60,212 nt of DNA from Terriglobia bacterium (GTDB taxonomy: Bacteria; Acidobacteriota; Terriglobia; Acidiferrales; UBA7541). A program made the translations under genes and the position numbers. Positions 322 through 60,212 of the stretch are shown here, in pieces (position 1 is the first letter of the stretch; each line of letters starts with the position of its first letter). The DNA lies in contig JAIQFB010000030.1 of the NCBI GenBank assembly GCA_020073485.1, positions 1 through 60,212 on the forward strand, read 5' to 3'. The notes below the pieces were generated by a model. The model worked only from the letters and a program-made list of their open reading frames with translations, was not told where the DNA came from and did no database searches.

Positions 322-3300
322 GTGAAAAAGTCCTTTTCCAGTAGTGTGATCCTTCTCGATCGGACATGCCGCGAACTCACCTGCCAGGGAGCGATCCGCG
401 ATCTTCGCAGCGCCCTGGCTCATTTCCGTCGCGCCGCGATCCTCGCCGCCACCCTGGCGCTCTGCGCCCCTCTCGGCGCCCTCGCGCAAATCACTCCTGT
501 CCGCCCGCGGGTTACGGATCGAGTGAACACGTCCCAACTCACGGCGCTCACGGGCAACACGCATCCTCTGGCGCGTGCGCAATTCGACCGCGGCGCCGCC
601 CCTGCGGACTTGCCCATGAACCGCATCATGCTGGTCCTGAAGCGCAGCCCCGAGCAGGAAGCCGCCCTGCAGGATTTGCTTGTCCAGCAGCAAACCATTG
701 CGTCCGCCAATTTTCATAAGTGGCTCACCCCGGACCAATTCGGCCAGCAATTCGGCCCCGCCGACGCTGATATTCAGGCCGTTACGTCCTGGCTCGCGTC
801 CTTCGGCTTTCAATCCATCAAGGTTTCCCGGGGCCGCACCGTCATCGAGTTTTCCGGCACGGCTTCCCAGGTTGAGTCCGCCCTGCACACGCCCATCCAC
901 CAGTACGTCGTGAACGGAGAATCGCATTGGGCCAACGCCAACGAACCGCAAATTCCCGCCGCGCTTGCTCCCGTAATTTCCGGAGTCGTATCTCTCCACA
1001 ATTTTCGCGCCAAGCCCGCATCGGCCCGCTCCGGTAGCAAAGGCACCGTGACGGTCGCGCCCGGCGAAAAGCCGCAGGTCAATCTGCAAGGTGGAGGGCA
1101 CGCGCTGGGACCTGCCGATTTCAACACCATCTATAACATCGGCCCCACAATGACCGGCAGCGGCGCCACCATTGGCGTGATCGCCGACTCGAACATCAAC
1201 GTGCAAGACGTTGCCGATTTCCGCACTCTGTTTGGGATGTCGACCGCGAACTTGCCGCAGATCATTCTGAACGGTCCCGATCCCGGCGTGGTCCCCGGTT
1301 CGCCTGCCGAAGGCGAAGCCGTGCTGGACGCGACCTGGTCCAGTGCCGTCGCTCCCGCCGCCACGGTCGATCTGGTCGTATCCGAGGACACCAACTCGGT
1401 GCAGGGAACCGACCTTTCGGCTGTCTACATCGTCGACAACAATCTGACCGATGTCATGATCGAAAGTTTCAGCGCCTGTGAGGCGTTTTTTTCGGGAAAC
1501 GCGGGTTTCTATTCCGGCCTCGCCGAGCAAGCCGCCGCGCAGGGAATCACTTTCCTGGTTGCATCCGGCGATGGCGGCCCGGACAGTTGTGACGATCCGA
1601 ACGTTCCACCTGCCACCACGCCTGCATCGGTCAATATCCTGGCATCCTCGTGGTACACCATGGCTGTCGGCGGCACGATGTTCAATGACACGGCAAGCCC
1701 CAGCACCTATTGGGGATCGCCCGGAACAAACGGGGAATCCGCGAAATCCTACATTCCGGAAAATGTCTGGAATGAAAGCTGCACCGTGGTGAGCTCAACG
1801 TGTCCCGGCATCGGTCTCTGGTCCAGCGGAGGAGGACAGAGCACTATCTTCGCCAAGCCGCCCTGGCAGACCGGCGTCGCGGGCATCCCGTCCGCCAACT
1901 CGCGGTTTCTCCCCGACGTTGCCTTGACCGCCGCCGACCACGACGGCTACATCGTGTGCATGGATGCCTCGTGCAACGGGAGCAGCAAAAGCTTCTTCAT
2001 CTTCAGCGGCACTTCCGCCTCCGTGCAATCTTTCGGTGGAATCATGGCCCTGGTCGTGCAAAAAGTCGGAAGGGTCGGCATTGCCAACTTCACGCTCTAC
2101 AATCTCGCACACACACAACAGACCGCTGGCACCTCCTGCAACGGATCGAACATCCTTCCATCCGCGCCGCCCGCCGGTGGTTGCACGTTTAATGATATTA
2201 CTTCCGGGAATACCAATATACCCGGCGAAACGGGTTTCGCCGCCGGCACAGGCTATGACGAAGCTACCGGCCTCGGCTCGGTCAACGTCACCAATCTAGT
2301 CAACAATTGGAGCACGGCCATCACCAGGGGGACAACGACGACTCTCACGCTCAACGGCGGAAATCCGGTCAATGTGACGCACGGTACAGCCGTGCCCTTC
2401 GCCGTTACCGTCGCTCCTGCGTCTGGAACCGGAACCCCGACCGGCGACATTTCGCTGGTCGCCAACGGTATCGTTGGCGGGGGCGCCGACTTCTTCACGC
2501 TGAACAACGGCGCCGTGACCTCCAATACCATGTTTCTCCCCGGCGGAACGTATCCGCTCAAAGCCCACTACCAGGGCGATGGCACCTTCCTGGGCAGCGA
2601 TTCCGCACCTACCACGATCACCGTCAGCCCGGAACCAAGCCGGACAACCCTCGGTATCGTCGTCGGCCTGCCTTGCTCTCTCTCTTCGTCCGTGGCCTAT
2701 GGCTCGCCGTACATTCTCAGTGTGGCCGTTTCGGATACGCATTCTGCCAGCACGCCATGCAATCCCCCGGAATTCGGTGCTCCTCCTACGGGAGGAATTT
2801 CCTTGACCGACACAGTCAACAACGTAACGTCCCCCCTCGACGGCGGCAGCTTCACCCTGAACAGTTTCGGATTCTTCGAGGACCAGCCCATCCAGCTTCT
2901 TGTCGGCACCCACACGATCAAGGCCACCTACGTCGGCGACAACAGCTTCACGGGAAGCAACTCCACGATCACGGTAACCGTAACCCAGGCAACAACAATG
3001 ACAACCGTCGCGGCCGTCCCGACCACCTCAACCGCCGGCCAAAGCGTCACGCTGACCGCGACCGTCGCAACGCAAAGCAATGCCGTCGCGAATTTGTCGC
3101 AGGAGCCAACGGGGTTCGTACAATTTTTCCTTGGCGGCGCAAATCTTGGATCGCCCGTCGCCGTTGTCGGCAGCGCAACCTCGGGCGGGTTGGCGCAAGC
3201 CACGGCGACAACGTCCACATCCACTCTGGCCAATGGCGCCAATTCCATCACCGCGAAATATCTGGGTGACGCCAATTACGCCGCCAGCGCAACCTCCCCG

Positions 3301-8544: not shown

Positions 8545-9522
8545 CTACTTCATTCCCACCGCGTCGGCATCCAGATTGCCGCCCGAGAGAATAATCCCGA
8601 TGCGCATATCCTCGGAATCTCCGGAAATCTGCCGGTGCAGCGCTGGCGAAGCCGCGACCGCGCCCGACGGCTCGACCGTGCATCGCAAGTGCTCCGTGAT
8701 CAGCTGCATCGAACGCAGGATTTCCGCTTCCGTGACCGGATAGATGCGGTCCACGCGCTCCTGCAAAATCGCAAACGTGCGCGGCGAAAGCGTCGCGCGC
8801 AAGCCGTCCGCGATCGTGAACAGGGGCGAGGCGGCCTCGATGTGCCCGGACGCCAGCGACCTGCGGGCGTCGTCTACATTGGCCGGCTCGCACCCCGCCA
8901 CCTGGATTTCCGGCCGCAGCGATTTCGCCGCAATAGCCGTCCCCGAAAGCAATCCGCCCCCGGACACCGCGGTGCATATCATGTCCAGGTCCGGAATTTC
9001 CTCGAGCAATTCCAGCGCCGCCGTGCCTTGCCCGGCGATCACGCGGTCGTCGTCGTACGGATGAATCAGGCTCGCGCCGGTTTCCCGCAGCAGCTTGGCG
9101 GCCGCCGCTTCGCGCGCTTCCAGCGTGGGCTCGCAAAACGTGATCTCCGCGCCATAGGCTTCCACCGCGCGAATCTTCACCTTCGGCGCGTTTCGCGGCA
9201 TCACCACCCAGGACCGGATTCCGCGCAACTGCGCCGCCAGCGCCAGCGCCGCTCCGTGGTTTCCCGACGAATGCGTCACCACTCCGCGCGCCGCCTCGGC
9301 TTCGCTCAGCGAAAACACCGCGTTGGCCGCGCCCCGGATCTTGAACGATCCTGATAGCTGCAAGTTTTCGCATTTGAAGAACAGCAACATTCCCGCGAGC
9401 TCGTCGAGCGGGTAGGAAATCATGACTTGCGTGTGTTCGATGTACGGGGAAATGCGCCGGTGCGCTTCGCGGATTGCCTGCAGGTCGGGGCCCGTAGAGG
9501 GATGGACGCTGGAATCGCTCAA
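8545..9522 (-). CDS. Threonine dehydratase / serine racemase-like PLP enzyme
   Basis: A 325-aa fold-type II pyridoxal-phosphate enzyme of the threonine dehydratase/serine racemase group. The PLP-binding lysine is K61 in GSFKIRGA, the substrate loop is SSGNHG (85-90), and the phosphate-binding glycine loop is VSGGGLLSG. The C-terminus carries SGGNLD. The length fits catabolic dehydratases and racemases without the C-terminal ACT regulatory domain of biosynthetic IlvA, so feedback control by isoleucine is unlikely. Probable reaction: deamination of L-threonine or L-serine, or hydroxyaspartate/serine racemase-type chemistry; sequence alone does not decide. It stands alone, divergent from the PilZ gene. 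Confidence 0.88.
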   Translation of the reverse strand: MSDSSVHPSTGPDLQAIREAHRRISPYIEHTQVMISYPLDELAGMLLFFKCENLQLSGSFKIRGAANAVFSLSEAEAARGVVTHSSGNHGAALALAAQLRGIRSWVVMPRNAPKVKIRAVEAYGAEITFCEPTLEAREAAAAKLLRETGASLIHPYDDDRVIAGQGTAALELLEEIPDLDMICTAVSGGGLLSGTAIAAKSLRPEIQVAGCEPANVDDARRSLASGHIEAASPLFTIADGLRATLSPRTFAILQERVDRIYPVTEAEILRSMQLITEHLRCTVEPSGAVAASPALHRQISGDSEDMRIGIILSGGNLDADAVGMK

Positions 9523-9689
9523 TGAGAAACCTCTTAAGACGGTGCATTATGGCACAGCTTGCCCCGGGTTGGTTCGGCCATCGAAAAATGCCTTCATTTC
9601 TCTTGCGCTCCACGTGCAGGCGCTTAGAATTGTCTCCACCCCTTCCTACTTTATCAGCCGCGCGCATTCCTGCGAGCGGGGAGGAAACC

Positions 9690-10037
9690 ATGAGCTCCAA
9701 TGAACGTCGTATCGATACGCGCGTGAATGTCCGGGTGCCCCTGCGATTCCGGGCGCTCAATATTGCAAACTCCGCGGAACAATCCGCGGAGTCGGAAAAC
9801 ATTTCACAACGGGGTATTTATTTTGAGACCGCGGTTCCTCTCAAGGTGGGCATGCCGTTGGAAGTTTCCCTGCGCATGCCGCAGGAACTTTCCGGGAAAT
9901 CCTCGGCCGATGTGCGGTGCGTGGCGCGCGTGGTTCACGTCCGCCAAAATCAGCAGGCTGGCGGCAAGTCCGGCGTGGGATTGCACATCGAGCGGTACGA
10001 GGCGAAAGTTTCCGCGGGCGAGCGTTGGACCAGCTGA
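9690..10037 (+). CDS. PilZ domain protein
   Basis: A 115-aa single-domain protein. The start at ATG 9690 is set by a strong Shine-Dalgarno (GGGGAGGA) and the family-typical opening. The PilZ c-di-GMP signature is present: an N-terminal RR...R (ERRIDTRVNV) and the loop ENISQRGIYF, matching the RxxxR and [D/N]xSxxG motifs. Members bind cyclic di-GMP and pass the signal to partner proteins, often in motility or polysaccharide export. No partner domain is fused and no diguanylate cyclase gene is nearby. A second stand-alone PilZ protein is encoded at 30267-30599. Confidence 0.85.
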   Translation: MSSNERRIDTRVNVRVPLRFRALNIANSAEQSAESENISQRGIYFETAVPLKVGMPLEVSLRMPQELSGKSSADVRCVARVVHVRQNQQAGGKSGVGLHIERYEAKVSAGERWTS

Positions 10038-10073
10038 AGGTTTTGGCGCTGCCGCCAGTCCAAAGGCCGCGAT

Positions 10074-12428
10074 TCAGTTTCCGCTGGCGGAAACCCGGAT
10101 CGTGGTCTTGGAACTGGAGGTGTTCTCGAACTGGTCGAAAACACGCACCGTGACGGTGTGCTCTCCCGGCGCGATTCTTTGCAGCGCGAAATCGTAATCC
10201 TCGCGCGGCCCGTCGCTCAATCCTCCGGCCGGTGAAACCAGCATCCACTCGCCCGCATCCACGCTGTACTGCGCGCGCGTCACAAAGCTCCCCGTGGCGT
10301 TTGCCTGAAACTTCACCCGCACCGCTCCCGTCGCCGCGGCCTCCGCCGTCAGCTGCGAAATCACCGGCGGCGTGTTGTCCACCACAAACCGCTCGGACTC
10401 GCGCTCCGCCGTCAGGCCCTCGCCGGCGGGATTGCCGGCCGCGTCACTGGCCACAATCTTCAAGTAGTAGACCCCGTCCGGCATCGAGGTCGTGTCCCAG
10501 GAATAGAACTTGGAATCCAGGTGATCCTTGAGCAGTTTCCAGCTAATTTCATTTTCCCCGCGAAAATAAATCGCGTATTCCAGCGGGTCGTCGTTGGCAT
10601 CCTCGGCGGTCCAGAGCACCGACTGGTAGCCTTTTTGGGCGGTTCCCTGCGGCACGGCGTCAAAATGCGCCGCCGCCACGGACGCCGTTGCGACCGCGGA
10701 TTGCGCCGCGGCGAATGCGGGAATGCCCGACGACGCCGGAGCCGGCGGCTGCGGCATGCGCAGTTGCGCCGGAGTTCCCGCTCCCACGACCGCCATCGGA
10801 ATGGCCGTGCCTTGCACGCGCACGCCGGGAACTTGCAGCGCAATGGCCGTCACGTCCGGAGCCACATTTTTCGGCAGGTATGCCAGGCTGACCCAATCGA
10901 CCTCCGGAGCAGGACCCGTGGCGCCTCCATGCAGCGCCGCTTTCCACTGCACGAACCGCGCCGGCGGGCAATCGACCTTGTCCGCGCCCATATTCGTGTA
11001 CGGGCCGCTCCACGGGCTCCAGTCGCTCTCCGGATTGGAAGTGTTTCCCGAGCGCGCGAAGAATTCGATCCGCGCGCCGCCCGTGCCCTTGCCGGCGGCG
11101 GCATTTTCGCCCCACCATTGCATTCTTCCAAAACGGGAAAAATTATGAGCGTCGAACGGCTGCGATTCAAACGTTCCTTCCGGTTCGTTGTCCGGTCCCA
11201 GGGCAAAGACTTTTCCCGGATTGGCCGCGGCAAGAAACATTTTTCCGCCCGGCCCCGGCGCGATCGACGTGATTTGGTGCGACGCTGCCTTCACCACCCG
11301 CGAATAAATGTGATTGCCCTCCAGCTCCACCACCGCGCCGTCATTGCCCGTCCCGAATATTAATTTTCCATTCGGCAGCAGCGCCAGCGCGTAAACCACC
11401 TGGTCGCGGGAATTCCAAAGTTCGTCCGGTGAACCGTCAGCCGAAATTTTATAGACCGAACTGGAATTCACGGCAGGGAAGGGAGTGAATCCTCCGGGCT
11501 GCGCCAGCGGCACGGCGCCAGCCGCAGTCCCCGCCGGCACCACTGTCATTGTGAAGTTTTGCGCCGGCTGCGTCTCCGTCACCTGCGGCCGCACCGGAAG
11601 CGGGGCCGCCGCGGTCTTCTCGCCCACCGCGGAAACATAGAGATTGCCAGCGGCGTCCTCGAGCAGCGCCGTAATTTCTCGTTTCGACGTTTCGTACAAA
11701 ACAAACGCGCGCGGATTTGCCCCTTTGGCAATGCGCAACACCCGCCCGCTCGGTTCGGTCCCGGCCAGCACGTTTCCTTTCGCATCCAGCGCCAGCGACC
11801 GGATGTGCGTTTCTCCGCTGGAATAAAAAACCTGCCCCTTGCCGTCCGGCGCCACCACAAAAATCTTGCCCGTATCCCCGGTGGCCACGTACACGGTTCC
11901 ATCCTTATCCACGGCCAGGTCCCAGATATATTTCGTCTTAGGATCGAAGAACACGGACGATTGCCCGCCCGGCGTCACCTTGTACACTTTTCCGTCCGGC
12001 GAAGTGCCCACGAACAAGTTTCCAGAGGAATCGATGGCCAGGGCCTGTGCCGCAAGTTCCTGCGATTCAAACACGCTGGTCGCCTTGCCGGCCGCGTCCA
12101 GCCGCAGCACCTTGGCGTTGGAGCCTCCCGCCGCGTACAGATTTCCCTTGCCATCGGCCCGCAAAGCCAGAAGATAGGCGAGATTCACGTCGGCAAATTC
12201 GGCGAATCGCGGAGCGAGAAATAATTTTCCGTCGCTGCGCAGCGCCACGCCCTTGGGCGTCCCTTTGTCAAAATCCTCAAACGTTTCCTGCCGCCACCAA
12301 CGCGTGTGCTCGGCCAGCGCCGGAGCCGCCAATGCCGCCAGCATTGCGCCCACAACGGCCAGCGCGCGTACCCGTGCCGCAATCTTTGCGCCGCGTATTT
12401 TGTCGCCGTGCAAGCAAGAAATCGCCAT
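10074..12428 (-). CDS. Exported beta-propeller (NHL/SMP-30-like repeat) protein
   Basis: A 784-aa protein with a signal peptide (hydrophobic AVVGAMLAALAAPALA, cleavage near residue 39). Residues from about 60 to 420 consist of propeller-blade repeats of the form D..GN.Y..G...G.V....P.G, seen in NHL, SMP-30 and two-component-regulator propellers. The C-terminal half (about 440-784) is beta-rich and includes an Ig/fibronectin-like segment (WTAEDANDDPLEYAIYFRG). The start has GAGGAG close upstream. No catalytic residues are recognisable; the role is probably ligand or protein binding in the periplasm or outside. It is the last gene of the minus-strand series of exported proteins. Confidence 0.75.
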   Translation of the reverse strand: MAISCLHGDKIRGAKIAARVRALAVVGAMLAALAAPALAEHTRWWRQETFEDFDKGTPKGVALRSDGKLFLAPRFAEFADVNLAYLLALRADGKGNLYAAGGSNAKVLRLDAAGKATSVFESQELAAQALAIDSSGNLFVGTSPDGKVYKVTPGGQSSVFFDPKTKYIWDLAVDKDGTVYVATGDTGKIFVVAPDGKGQVFYSSGETHIRSLALDAKGNVLAGTEPSGRVLRIAKGANPRAFVLYETSKREITALLEDAAGNLYVSAVGEKTAAAPLPVRPQVTETQPAQNFTMTVVPAGTAAGAVPLAQPGGFTPFPAVNSSSVYKISADGSPDELWNSRDQVVYALALLPNGKLIFGTGNDGAVVELEGNHIYSRVVKAASHQITSIAPGPGGKMFLAAANPGKVFALGPDNEPEGTFESQPFDAHNFSRFGRMQWWGENAAAGKGTGGARIEFFARSGNTSNPESDWSPWSGPYTNMGADKVDCPPARFVQWKAALHGGATGPAPEVDWVSLAYLPKNVAPDVTAIALQVPGVRVQGTAIPMAVVGAGTPAQLRMPQPPAPASSGIPAFAAAQSAVATASVAAAHFDAVPQGTAQKGYQSVLWTAEDANDDPLEYAIYFRGENEISWKLLKDHLDSKFYSWDTTSMPDGVYYLKIVASDAAGNPAGEGLTAERESERFVVDNTPPVISQLTAEAAATGAVRVKFQANATGSFVTRAQYSVDAGEWMLVSPAGGLSDGPREDYDFALQRIAPGEHTVTVRVFDQFENTSSSKTTIRVSASGN

Positions 12429-57412: not shown

Positions 57413-58006
57413 TTGATCGACAACCACAATGCGTCCAAGCTCGATGCCCTCGCCGCATTTGCGGAATTCGGCTCGGCGAATCTAGAGAAAGCCGGAACGC
57501 CTCAACGCATGGATGAAGCCGCCTTTTCCGTGTTCTACAACCAGACCGCGCCCAGGCTCTGGTCTTATATTCGCAGGACTTCGGGCGACGCGGCCTTGGC
57601 CGACGATCTGCTGCAAGAAACTTTTTACCGTTTCCTGCGCGCTGATCTGCCGGAGATGGATATTGCCCGCAGCAGGGCCTATCTCTACCGCATCGCGAGC
57701 TCCCTGATTTCCGATCATTGGCGGCAACAGAAGCGGGAACGTCGATGGAGTTTCCTATCGAATTTCCGCAGCGAGCCGTTCGCGAAACCCCAAAGCGCCG
57801 GAGACGGCATGCGCGTATTTGAACAGTTGAAGATCCAGGAGCAGTCGCTTCTCTGGCTGGCCTACGTGGAGGGCTTTGACCATCGGGAAATTGCCGTGGC
57901 CCTGCAACTGAGAGAAAAAAGCGTCCGCGTCCTGCTGTTTCGCGCCCGCAAGAAATTAGCCGGACTGCTCGTCAAACAAAACATCGGTCCCGGGGAGGGA
58001 ATATGA
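57413..58006 (+). CDS. ECF-type RNA polymerase sigma factor
   Basis: A 197-aa sigma-70 family protein of the extracytoplasmic-function group. The sigma-2 region has FYNQTAPRLWSYIRRTSGDA, then the LADDLLQETFYRFL core helix and RSRAYLYRIASSLISDHWR. The sigma-4 region has LWLAYVEGFDHREIAVALQL and RVLLFRARKKL. There is no region 3. The start is uncertain: TTG 57413 is 15 nt after the previous gene, while ATG 57509 would begin right at the sigma-2 domain (165 aa). Its stop overlaps the anti-sigma ATG (ATGA), typical of a sigma/anti-sigma pair. Confidence 0.88.
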   Translation: MIDNHNASKLDALAAFAEFGSANLEKAGTPQRMDEAAFSVFYNQTAPRLWSYIRRTSGDAALADDLLQETFYRFLRADLPEMDIARSRAYLYRIASSLISDHWRQQKRERRWSFLSNFRSEPFAKPQSAGDGMRVFEQLKIQEQSLLWLAYVEGFDHREIAVALQLREKSVRVLLFRARKKLAGLLVKQNIGPGEGI

Positions 58007-58491
58007 GGCAAGCAACCTGCCCTCAGGAAGCAGACGTCCTCAAATCGGTTCGCACAGGGATATGGTCGGAAGCCCTCTCCGCGCATATGGAAACCTGCGC
58101 CGATTGTAAGGAACTCGTTCGCGCCTCGCGATGGATGCAGGCGCTGGCGCAAAGTTCCGCAACCAATCCGCCGCTGCCAGACGCCGCCCGCGTATGGTGG
58201 CGGGCCCAGCTTTCCGATAAACAGGCAAAAGCGGAACGCGCCCAGGAATTATTCGAGTGGTCGGAAATCATTTCCGCAAGCGTCATCTGCGCAGCCCTCG
58301 CAGTCTGGATCGTCTGGCATTGGTCCGCAGTCCAATTCTTTTTCGCCTCCATCTTGGCCGGCGCCCTGCCGCACTCATGGCTCACGGCCTCTCCGCTCCT
58401 CGCCTCAACTCCGGCAATCCTCTTCCTGTCCGCCGTGATCGTGTCGTTGGCAGCGGCAGTCCTGGCCTACCCGATCCTGGCCCGCGATTGA
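58003..58491 (+). CDS. Zinc-finger (zf-HC2) anti-sigma factor
   Basis: A 162-aa membrane protein translationally coupled to the sigma factor by ATGA. The N-terminal zinc-binding anti-sigma motif H-x3-C-x2-C is seen in HMETCADC, with an upstream Cys (ATCPQE) as possible ligand. Two hydrophobic segments follow (about 88-110, IISASVICAALAVWIVWHWS, and about 135-155). The family holds its sigma factor at the membrane until a signal releases it. The signal is unknown. Confidence 0.82.
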   Translation: MRQATCPQEADVLKSVRTGIWSEALSAHMETCADCKELVRASRWMQALAQSSATNPPLPDAARVWWRAQLSDKQAKAERAQELFEWSEIISASVICAALAVWIVWHWSAVQFFFASILAGALPHSWLTASPLLASTPAILFLSAVIVSLAAAVLAYPILARD

Positions 58492-58740
58492 TTTTCAAAG
58501 CTGGAGTTATCAAACCTCCTAAAAAACGCCTCGAAGAATTGGAAACAAAACCCATGCCTCCCATGTCATTGGCAATTCGACTTCTCCTGGCGCTGAAAGA
58601 GGGGACATAGAACCTATACAATTGCAATGGCAAGGACGTAGGCTTCTTGCAATGCAGAATTCTCTCGCTTTTTGTATCTAACGGAGATCAGTTCAGGGCT
58701 GCTTCGCGCTCGGGCCTGTTTCCGAGAACCCCGTTTCTCA
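58492..58740. other. Flank left of the insertion sequence
   Basis: About 250 nt after the anti-sigma gene with no gene. An 8-bp direct repeat TTGCAATG occurs at 58622-58629 and 58648-58655. The true left boundary of the insertion sequence lies near the right end of this stretch and is not exactly defined. Confidence 0.4.
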
Positions 58741-58746
58741 GATGGG

Positions 58747-58760
58747 ATGAGAAGGCCGGT
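58747..58760. repeat. Left subterminal inverted repeat of the IS
   Basis: ATGAGAAGGCCGGT, exactly complementary to the right repeat at 60189-60202. It lies 67 nt before the transposase start. Confidence 0.9.
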
Positions 58761-58827
58761 CTCCGGCGGGATGCGATACGCTCCCAATGGTCGACGCGCT
58801 CGAAGCGCAACGAAAAGGAGACCGGCT

Positions 58828-59928
58828 ATGAAAAAGACTATCACTGTACAGGCATTCAAGAGCGAAATTTTCAAGGAGCAAAAGCTGACGATCGGCATGG
58901 ATCTGGGAGATCGCTGGTCGTTCTACTGTGTTTTGGATGAAGCAGGCCAAGTCATTTTGGAACAGAAGCTGCCGACGACACCGGAAGCGATGAAGCAGAA
59001 ATTTGGAAAGATACCGCGAAGTCTCATCGCTCTGGAGACAGGAACACATTCCCCCTGGGTAAGCCGGCTGCTCAGTGAGTTGGGACACGAAGTGATCGTG
59101 GCGCACGCACAAAAGGTGCAGCTGATCACCAAGAGTAATCGAAAAGATGATCGGCACGATGCTCGGACACTGGCGCGGTTGGCGCGCCTGGATCCGCGTT
59201 TGCTGAGCCCGGTGCAGCATCGCAGTGCAGAAGCGCAAGTGCATCTGACGGTGATCCGGGCGCGGGCGGAACTGGTGAGTGCTCGAACAGCCTTGGTGAA
59301 CGCAGCACGGGGGTTGGTGAAGTCTTATGGGGAACGACTGCCCAAGTGCGGCACGTATCAGGTGAGCCGGGAGCTGGCCGCTGCATTGAGCACAGAATTG
59401 CGGGATGTTCTGGAGCCGCTGCTCAAAGAAATCGAGTCGTTGAACGAGCGCATCAAGGAATACGACGAACGGATGGAGAAAATCGCCAAGCAAGCGTATC
59501 CGGAAGTGTCCTTGCTCAAGCAGGTGAAGGGCGTGGGAACACAGATCGCTCTGACCTATGTCCTGACGATCGAGGACCCGTATCGGTTTGCGAAGAGTCG
59601 CCAGGTAGGCTGTTTTCTGGGGTTACGACCTGGCCGCAGGAACTCTGGGCAGAGCGAACCACAGAAGGGCATCAGCAAAGAAGGAGACCGGTATCTGCGC
59701 ACGATGATGGTGCAAGGAGCGCACTACATTCTGGGACCTTTTGGCCAAGACAGTGATCTGCGGAGATGGGGACGCAAGCTTGCGGAGCGGGGAGGGAAAA
59801 ATGCCAAGAAGCGAGCGGTCGTGGCCGTGGCTCGAAAGCTGGCGGTACTGCTGCATCGGTTGTGGGTAGGGGGAGAGGTGTACGAACCACTGCGCAATAG
59901 CCAGAAAGCAATGCGGGAAGTGGCCTAG
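58828..59928 (+). CDS. IS110 family transposase (DEDD)
   Basis: A 366-aa transposase. The N-terminal RuvC-like DEDD domain shows D25 (IGMDLGDRW), E70 (LIALETGTH) and D108/D111 (KDDRHDARTLA). A coiled-coil spacer (about 200-240) precedes the Tnp_IS116/110/902 domain with LLKQVKGVGTQIALTYVLTI and the serine S283 in GISKEGDRYLR, which in this family forms the covalent DNA link. ATG 58828 has AAGGAG upstream; the longer frame from 58672 crosses the left end and lacks support. Intact, so potentially active. Recent work on IS621 shows these enzymes use a bridge RNA to pick donor and target. Confidence 0.95.
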   Translation: MKKTITVQAFKSEIFKEQKLTIGMDLGDRWSFYCVLDEAGQVILEQKLPTTPEAMKQKFGKIPRSLIALETGTHSPWVSRLLSELGHEVIVAHAQKVQLITKSNRKDDRHDARTLARLARLDPRLLSPVQHRSAEAQVHLTVIRARAELVSARTALVNAARGLVKSYGERLPKCGTYQVSRELAAALSTELRDVLEPLLKEIESLNERIKEYDERMEKIAKQAYPEVSLLKQVKGVGTQIALTYVLTIEDPYRFAKSRQVGCFLGLRPGRRNSGQSEPQKGISKEGDRYLRTMMVQGAHYILGPFGQDSDLRRWGRKLAERGGKNAKKRAVVAVARKLAVLLHRLWVGGEVYEPLRNSQKAMREVA

Positions 59929-60188
59929 AGAGTTGCGATCCGAGGAGCCGAGCTCAACCGCCGAGTCCAGGTGACTGCGACTAAGTCCTGGGGCCCAACT
60001 CCCACCGAATCGGTGGGAATAGAGGTCGATTCTCAGGTAGCAGCACCACTGAAACGAGAACACCCAACTTGCACCGAGCGAATATCGCTCACAAAAGAGT
60101 GCGGATGGAAGGATGGCGACAGAGGCGGCCCGGTTCTCAGGAAGACCACTCGACAATCAAAGGCAACTGCAAAACCAACTTGACACTA
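59929..60188 (+). ncRNA. Candidate bridge RNA region in the IS 3' end
   Basis: This 260-nt non-coding end is unusually rich in stems: CCAGG/CCTGG (59967-59971 with 59987-59991), a perfect hairpin TCCCACCG-AAT-CGGTGGGA (60000-60018), and GAGCGA-ATA-TCGCTC (60076-60090). In IS1111-group elements the guide (bridge) RNA is known to map to the 3' end. The RNA limits and the target- and donor-binding loops cannot be assigned from one copy. Confidence 0.45.
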
Positions 60189-60202
60189 ACCGGCCTTCTC
60201 AT
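60189..60202. repeat. Right subterminal inverted repeat of the IS
   Basis: ACCGGCCTTCTCAT, exactly complementary to the left repeat at 58747-58760. The element's right boundary should lie a few bases beyond it, close to the window edge. Confidence 0.9.
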
Positions 60203-60212
60203 GGAAGGACTT

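What the first reader, a model, noticed from the sequence alone, without database searches (positions are those of the whole stretch)
58741..60208. IS110/IS1111-type element with a candidate bridge RNA in its 3' end
The sequence shows an intact DEDD/Ser transposase, exact 14-bp subterminal inverted repeats and a long, stem-rich 3' non-coding end. Established work on IS621 and relatives shows that IS110-superfamily elements are guided by a bridge RNA, placed 3' in the IS1111 group. The stems at 59967-59991, 60000-60018 and 60076-60090 fit a structured RNA. The specific RNA and its target and donor loops here are inferred.
Basis: partly seen in the sequence, partly recalled or inferred. Interest (0 to 1): 0.78.

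Follow-up and report, generated by a model that had tools for sequence, protein, structure and literature searches.

The report
RNA-guided IS1111 jumping element
This is a bacterial jumping gene of the known IS1111 kind; its 3' end encodes a predicted guide RNA whose short segments match the element's own end and the repeated palindrome where it sits, so it is a well-supported new example of a known mechanism rather than a new mechanism.

Summary
Confirmed and sharpened. Window 58740-60205 is an intact IS1111-group (IS110-family) element: 366-aa DEDD/Ser transposase, exact 14-bp subterminal inverted repeats, 7-bp left and 3-bp right extensions, long 3' non-coding end. In related elements the right-target guide of the predicted bridge RNA (seekRNA) pairs with each element's own right flank (30 elements, mean 6.88 of 8, permuted 5.07, 0 of 20,000 permutations reach it; the other 18 of 19 RNA windows tested give z 3.1 at most against 11.1). 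The left-target guide matches the left flank (19 insertions, 0 of 20,000); the left-donor guide equals the element's own end in 31 of 33. Uninterrupted targets read TTTCTCAG|GACTTGG, within a dispersed REP-like palindrome (17 copies in this genome at up to 3 mismatches, reversed control 0). In another genome 7 of 7 copies of a relative sit in a different palindrome that its own guide fits. Corrections: borders are off by 1 and 3 bases; the proposed stem 59967-59991 is a stem arm plus guide; folding of the single sequence is unremarkable (z -1.78); stem covariation is modest, and the right-donor guide is weak. RNA expression and transposition are untested. New member of a known kind.

The parts
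58740..60205 (+). Whole IS1111-group element, 1466 bp (equivalently 58742-60207; the AG core at 58740-58741 recurs at 60206-60207)
   Evidence: Uninterrupted targets TTTCTCAG|GACTTGG; 14-bp inverted repeats; homologous ends
58722..58741 (+). Left half of the REP-like target palindrome CCGAGAACCCCGTTTCTCAG (left target plus core AG)
   Evidence: Repeat found uninterrupted elsewhere in this genome and its genus
58742..58746 (+). Right-donor side of the left end, ATGGG (with the AG core: 7-bp left extension)
   Evidence: Conserved in left ends of homologues
58747..58760 (+). Left subterminal inverted repeat ATGAGAAGGCCGGT
58828..59928 (+). DEDD/Ser transposase, 366 aa (D25, E70, D108, D111, S273)
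59958..60123 (+). Aligned block of the predicted bridge RNA (seekRNA); true 5' and 3' ends unknown
   Evidence: 32 aligned 3' ends; guide covariation
59970..59978 (+). 5' arm of the stem closing the target-binding loop (pairs with 60040-60047)
59981..59988 (+). Right-target guide CTAAGTCC, complementary to the target top strand GGACTTGG (seven standard pairs, one G-U)
   Evidence: target copies
60001..60017 (+). Apical hairpin CCCACCG-AAT-CGGTGGG (short or missing in some relatives)
60028..60037 (+). Left-target guide GATTCTCAGG (same sense as the target top strand GTTTCTCAGG, one difference; would pair with the bottom strand)
   Evidence: target copies
60040..60047 (+). 3' arm of the target-loop stem GCAGCACC
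60061..60066 (+). Possible right-donor guide CACCCA (only CCCA opposite TGGG of the left end); weak
   Evidence: Position by analogy; conserved block; not shown by covariation
60076..60090 (+). Donor-side hairpin GAGCGAATATCGCTC
60104..60112 (+). Left-donor guide GATGGAAGG, matches own right end ATGGAAG plus G
   Evidence: 31 of 33 elements match their own end
60180..60185 (+). TTGACA (TTGAC kept in most relatives shown), possible -35 box of a promoter formed when the ends join in the circle; inferred, no clear -10 box
   Evidence: a circle-junction promoter is described for ISEc11 (PMC11187229); no promoter found in the linear form
60189..60202 (+). Right subterminal inverted repeat ACCGGCCTTCTCAT
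60203..60207 (+). GGA (3-bp right extension) followed by the AG core
60208..60212 (+). Right target GACTT, cut off by the contig end

Best explanation
An intact IS1111-group insertion sequence. Its transposase would use an RNA transcribed from the element's 3' end that carries, 5' to 3', a right-target guide (pairs with the target top strand), a left-target guide (pairs with the bottom strand) and, in a second structured region, donor guides for the element's own ends. The complex would excise the element as a circle, hold the circle junction and a target palindrome together, and recombine them at a shared AG dinucleotide, so that the element lands in one orientation between TTTCTCAG and GACTTGG without a new duplication. 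Shown here by computation: the element, its borders, the target repeat, and the match between each element's guides and its own flanks and end. Inferred from characterised relatives: transcription, complex formation, circle, strand exchange.
For: Family and catalytic residues. AlphaFold model (mean pLDDT 84.9) finds IS621 8wt6 at E 7.3e-13 and ISCro4 9t56 at 1.1e-11. 14-bp repeats and 7/3-bp extensions set by uninterrupted targets, as in the IS1111 definition (PMC11187229, passages). Right-target guide: 30 elements, mean 6.88 of 8, permuted 5.07 (sd 0.16), 0 of 20,000; thinned to 15 (window not among them), 6.83 against 4.99, 0 of 50,000; of 19 windows slid along the RNA the predicted one has z 11.1, the other 18 lie between -1.9 and 3.1. 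Left-target guide: 19 insertions, 6.95 of 10 against 4.64, 0 of 20,000; without the core 4.95 of 8 against 2.89, 0 of 20,000. Left-donor guide equals own end in 31 of 33 elements over three sequence variants. The core is AA instead of AG in both guides and both junctions of L090, L091, L093 and L095, four related elements. Guide order top-strand match first, as reported for IS1111. G204: 7 of 7 copies sit in one palindrome whose right half is complementary to the guide; 167 uninterrupted copies at up to 2 mismatches, reversed control 6.
Against: No transcript data. Single-sequence folding is only z -1.78, and covariation energy terms are -0.69 and +0.1. The right-donor guide is weak (4 bp). 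In 11 of 30 elements some foreign flank scores strictly better than the own one, the window among them (8 better; only 6 flank bases are available there, all 6 paired), partly because close relatives share targets. Left-target matches are poor in L093 (4 of 10) and L090 (5.5 of 10). L019 and L038 break the left-donor match. Of the 12 uninterrupted places with the left motif, 5 continue with GACTT and 7 do not. The transposase is 366 aa, above the 330-350 aa spread given for IS1111. Only one intact copy in this genome, so recent activity is unproven.
Confidence: 0.93

Rival explanations
1. IS1111 element as described, but no longer active: an old copy whose transposase frame happens to be open and whose RNA is no longer made. 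(Not exclusive of the best explanation, which concerns how the element works or worked.)
For: One intact copy only; 5'-truncated relatives in the order; no promoter found in the linear form.
Against: Intact 366-aa frame with all catalytic residues, exact 14-bp repeats, guides fitting the target repeat; relatives at 84-90% identity in other genomes.
Confidence: 0.25
2. Target choice by protein recognition of palindromic DNA, the RNA having another role such as regulating the transposase gene.
For: Targets are palindromic repeats in this genus and in G204; two small RNAs regulate the ISPpu9 transposase (start of the abstract of PMC8450116 in the listing; that ISPpu9 is of the IS110 family is recalled).
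Against: Guides follow each element's own flanks at one RNA position only; the core change AG to AA appears in the RNA and at both ends together.
Confidence: 0.03
3. The matches between RNA and flanks are chance similarity and the conserved 3' end is only untranslated mRNA.
For: Single-sequence fold is unremarkable; covariation inside stems is modest.
Against: Permutation tests and window control; donor-side hairpins kept with changed sequences.
Confidence: 0.01

Closest known systems
ISPa11 (IS1111 group, seekRNA shown; PMC11187229, parts of Results and passages read)
   Same: 3' RNA with top-strand guide before bottom-strand guide, subterminal repeats, REP palindrome as target
   Different: Different host and REP; RNA here not observed directly. 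Its guide letters were not compared
ISEc11, ISKpn4, ISPst6 (IS1111 group, PMC11187229)
   Same: Downstream non-coding region, guide order; for ISEc11 no additional bases at the insertion; family rule of 7-bp and 3-bp extensions
   Different: Short linear target (ISEc11) or attC (ISKpn4, ISPst6); TnpEc11 has 339 aa, here 366
IS621 and ISCro4 (IS110 group, bridge RNA; PMC11208160 section 12 and passages, PMC11208158 passages; structures 8wt6, 9t56)
   Same: DEDD/Ser recombinase fold, target and donor guides, dinucleotide core; REP target for IS621 is recalled
   Different: Bridge RNA lies in the left end in most of the IS110 group, inverted repeats only 2-3 bp; core CT in IS621, AG here
TIGR-Tas (NF052498; structure 9mty)
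   Same: Related fold
   Different: 22.4 bits against a cut-off of 100; a TIGR array was not looked for

Membership tests
IS1111 group of the IS110 family | DEDD RuvC-type domain plus Transposase_20 (PF02371) domain | tested here: met
   D25, E70, D108, D111 invariant in 20 aligned proteins
IS1111 group of the IS110 family | GL-P----S(t)G motif in the C-terminal domain | tested here: met
   GLRPGRRNSG in the protein; motif from PMC11187229
IS1111 group of the IS110 family | Subterminal inverted repeats, usually 11-13 bp (7-17 in another survey) | tested here: met
   14 bp, 100%; ranges
IS1111 group of the IS110 family | 7-bp left and 3-bp right extensions beyond the repeats | tested here: met
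   Set by uninterrupted targets; rule
IS1111 group of the IS110 family | Long non-coding region downstream of the gene | tested here: met
   Right end 59929-60205, left end 58740-58827
IS1111 group of the IS110 family | Guide matching the top strand lies 5' of the guide matching the bottom strand | tested here: met
   59981-59988 before 60028-60037; covariation; rule
IS1111 group of the IS110 family | Usual (not defining) transposase length of 330-350 aa | tested here: not met
   366 aa; the paper gives this as the spread of lengths, not as a criterion
IS1111 group of the IS110 family | Transposase falls with IS1111 transposases in a tree | not tested
   No tree with named IS1111 and IS110 transposases was built
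IS1111 group of the IS110 family | RNA bound to the transposase; circular intermediate | not testable with these tools
   Needs expression and PCR
IS110 group (IS621-like) | Bridge RNA upstream of the gene, inverted repeats absent or 2-3 bp | tested here: not met
   RNA downstream, 14-bp repeats
TIGR-Tas | NCBIfam NF052498 above its cut-off | tested here: not met
   22.4 bits against 100

The most novel reading that the evidence does not exclude
Copies that lost the transposase gene but keep the guide RNA (the C17 copy in this genome, which also keeps both ends, and further 3'-end copies in the order) act as separate guide-RNA sources or as RNA-guided miniature elements, so that one transposase could be aimed in trans by several relic RNAs.
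Probability: 0.07. Interest if true: 0.55.

Novelty: new member of a known kind. Interest (0 to 1): 0.32.

Why it matters
It gives an independent comparative confirmation that IS1111 guide RNAs track their targets across natural elements, here in Acidobacteria-like genomes (the word Acidobacter- is not in the main text of the seekRNA paper), with an exact target, exact borders and a natural change of core dinucleotide that can be tested. It adds candidate sets of recombinase, guide and target: 34 of 399 genomes of the class, the own one included, carry a relative at E up to 1e-70.

Tried and rejected
Integron attC as target: suspected because target repeats cluster at 0.3-3 kb spacing, often on one strand. 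Set aside by eye, not tested: copies occur on both strands, some are preceded by an inverted partial copy, and they have GCCA...TGGC ends and palindromic arms, as in REP doublets. No search for an integrase was run.

Rfam: no match at E up to 1 in 58500-60212. The promoter scan found none in the linear form.

The third LTG-like copy at 60131-60144 was dropped as a guide: L030 keeps something close, the other relatives shown differ.

A covariance model was not built. Stem covariation is modest; the guide covariation carries the argument.

Miniature elements: 30 of the 44 left-end places listed became loci; only the C17 copy showed left end, RNA and right end without a full gene. L157 (no RNA match) and L042 (its left end would lie beyond the contig end) are other internal deletions. 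Of 10 copies without a full gene inspected by eye, 9 have DNA upstream that does not look like the element and L042 runs into the contig end.

Rows dropped: from the 40 anchor hits, four spurious anchors (second hits in L019, L034, L092, L097) were removed, leaving 36, the window's included. The right-guide test left out L041, L044 and L083 (no right end) and L082 (two overlapping right-end matches) and merged L093 and L095 with L091 as duplicates, leaving 30. The thinned and sliding tests also left out the window's own element, whose flank is cut. The left-guide test left out 16 elements without a recognised left end and merged one duplicate, leaving 19. The left-donor count left out the three without a right end, leaving 33.

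Full report
What is there. At its right end lies an intact element. The transposase frame 58828-59928 codes 366 aa, scores 233.3 bits to NF033542 (cut-off 140) and passes both IS110 Pfam models. In 20 aligned proteins D25, E70, D108, D111, S273 and G274 are invariant, which fits D11, E60, D102, D105, S241 and G242 of IS621 in order, with the same D-x-x-D spacing (residues from passages of PMC11208158). The AlphaFold model (pLDDT 84.9, pTM 0.76) matches IS621 (8wt6, E 7.3e-13) and ISCro4 (9t56) first in the PDB and TIGR-TasR next.

Borders and target. The 14-bp repeats are exact. Across homologues, conservation runs past the repeats into ATGGG on the left and GGA-AG on the right. A search for the left-flank motif GANAAYCCCGTTNNTCAG in 95 genomes of the order found 18 places in 10 genomes, reversed control 0. 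Six continue into an element end. Twelve do not: five of those continue with GACTT, two with GAGTTG and five otherwise. The uninterrupted site that fits the window is TTTCTCAG|GACTTGG; this genome itself holds CCGAGAATCCCGTTTCTCAGGACTTGG. Placing the shared AG once gives an element 58740-60205 with a 7-bp left and a 3-bp right extension, the IS1111 rule (PMC11187229, passages). The target CCGANAANCCCGTTTNTCAGGACTTGG, with up to 3 mismatches, occurs 17 times in this genome and in 6 of 6 genomes of the genus, 61 places in all, reversed control 0. It has palindromic arms (GATAA/TTATC or GAGAA/TTCTC) and copies on both strands, some preceded by an inverted partial copy, like REP doublets; that is a reading by eye.

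The RNA. Thirty-two 3' ends, the window's included, align over 141-170 nt (32 of the 36 kept were given to it). The layout is: stem arm GGTGACTGC, right-target guide, apical hairpin (short or missing in part of the set), left-target guide, stem arm GCAGCACC, a block around ACCCAAC (changed or missing in some, for example L084 and L085), a hairpin, then the left-donor guide. RNAalifold gives 13 pairs with 4 showing two-sided changes on the wide set and 34 pairs with 3 on a closer set of 18; the covariation energies are small (-0.69 and +0.1). In one search the apical segment was under 10 nt in 8 of 36 elements; of the 28 folded, 27 are at or below the shuffled mean and 11 have z of -2 or lower. 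The donor segment is below the shuffled mean in 34 of 36 and has z of -2 or lower in 29; in the two failures, L092 and L095, the script seems to have cut the segment short. Donor stems change sequence while staying paired (GAGCG/CGCTC, GGAGC/GCTCC, GGACC/GGTCC, GGGCC/GGCCC). The single-sequence fold is weak evidence (z -1.78).

Guides follow targets. For 30 distinct elements the 16 nt around the right-target guide score 6.88 of 8 against their own right flank and 5.07 (sd 0.16) against shuffled flanks; 0 of 20,000 permutations reach the observed mean; in 19 of 30 no foreign flank scores higher, in 11 some do. Thinned to 15 dissimilar guides it is 6.83 against 4.99, 0 of 50,000, and of 19 windows slid along the RNA only the predicted one stands out (z 11.1; the next is its overlapping neighbour at 3.1). 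Examples: AACTCC with GGAGTT (L019, L032), TAATCGCC with GGCGATTA (L079, L097), CTCAGCGGC with GCCGCTGAG (L086). The left-target guide agrees with the left flank in 19 insertions, 6.95 of 10 against 4.64, 0 of 20,000, and without the core 4.95 of 8 against 2.89, 0 of 20,000; single cases range from 4 (L093) to 9 (the window). The left-donor guide equals the element's own end in 31 of 33 (20 ATGGAAG, 7 ATAGAAG, 4 ATAGAAA; exceptions L019 and L038). In L090, L091, L093 and L095 the core is AA instead of AG in both guides and at both junctions; these four are related and may be one event. In the window, 59981-59988 pairs with GGACTTGG (seven standard pairs and one G-U; six of the eight target bases lie in the window) and 60028-60037 matches GTTTCTCAGG but for one base.

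An independent case. Genome G204, one contig, holds 7 copies of a relative about 52% identical to the window protein. All 7 lie between GCGGCTT(C/T)AG and AGCCGCTGAGG, and their RNAs read CTCAGCGGCT, the exact complement of AGCCGCTGAG. The joined target occurs uninterrupted 167 times at up to 2 mismatches, reversed control 6.

Mechanism. By analogy with ISEc11, ISPa11 and ISKpn4 (PMC11187229: abstract, parts 1 and 2 of Results, the section 'Many IS, many different targets' and passages) and IS621 (PMC11208160 section 12 and passages; PMC11208158 passages), the transposase would bind the 3' RNA, pair target and circle junction, and recombine at AG. TTGACA at 60180 (TTGAC kept in most relatives shown) could be the -35 box of a promoter formed when the ends meet, as described for ISEc11, but no clear -10 box is seen.

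Distribution. With the own genome counted, relatives at E up to 1e-60 occur in 12 of 95 genomes of the order and, at E up to 1e-70, in 34 of 399 genomes of the class. A DNA query of the 3' end (which begins in the last 84 bases of the gene) matches at E up to 0.001 in 31 of 95 genomes of the order; program and threshold differ, so the two counts are not like for like. The C17 copy in this genome keeps both ends, the RNA and a stub of the gene.

Novelty. The kind is known: Durrant et al. predicted a bridge RNA in 93.0% of IS1111 elements, mostly in the right end, and Siddiquee et al. showed RNA-guided transposition of IS1111 elements, ISPa11 with a REP target among those whose RNA they purified. 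In the held library no paper contains all of Acidobacteri-, insertion sequence and bridge RNA; that is one search of one open library and says little about what is in print.

Noticed in passing
L058 about 1857-2295 (minus strand), G000:C17:9350-9812: Internally deleted copy in the same genome: left end, a stub of the transposase gene, RNA and right end, sitting in the same kind of target (GATCAG | GACTTGG).
   Followed up: partly
L029, L030, L031, L033, L034, L037, L038, L043, L044: 3' ends with the guide RNA but no full transposase gene (L029, L031, L038 and L043 keep a stub); the DNA upstream does not look like the element.
   Followed up: partly
L128-L135: REP-like palindromes, in clusters, some preceded by an inverted partial copy; two sequence types, CCGANAAGACGACTTNTCGG and CCGANAANNCCGTTTNTCAGG, of which the second fits the guides.
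   Followed up: partly
L178-L184 and L166-L171 (G204): Seven copies of a relative all inside another palindrome that has 167 uninterrupted copies in that genome at up to 2 mismatches.
   Followed up: yes
L090, L091, L093, L095: Core dinucleotide AA instead of AG, changed together in both guides and at both junctions.
   Followed up: partly
L150 about 250-360 (G092:C269): A roughly 110-bp palindromic miniature made of a left end and an inverted copy of its tip.
   Followed up: no
L019 / L035 (G065:C350): Two left ends of the family in the same orientation on one contig, the second a little over 1 kb beyond the first element's right end.
   Followed up: no
window 60131-60144: CGGTTCTCAGGAAG resembles the left-target guide but is not kept in most relatives shown; role unexplained.
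   Followed up: partly
L005 and L006 (G000:C43:48272-49231 and 9472-10314): Two other IS110-like transposases in the genome, 32% and 28% identical; their RNAs and targets were not studied.
   Followed up: no
window 57413-58491: Two overlapping frames just upstream that look like a sigma factor and its anti-sigma factor (by eye only); the element lies downstream of them.
   Followed up: no
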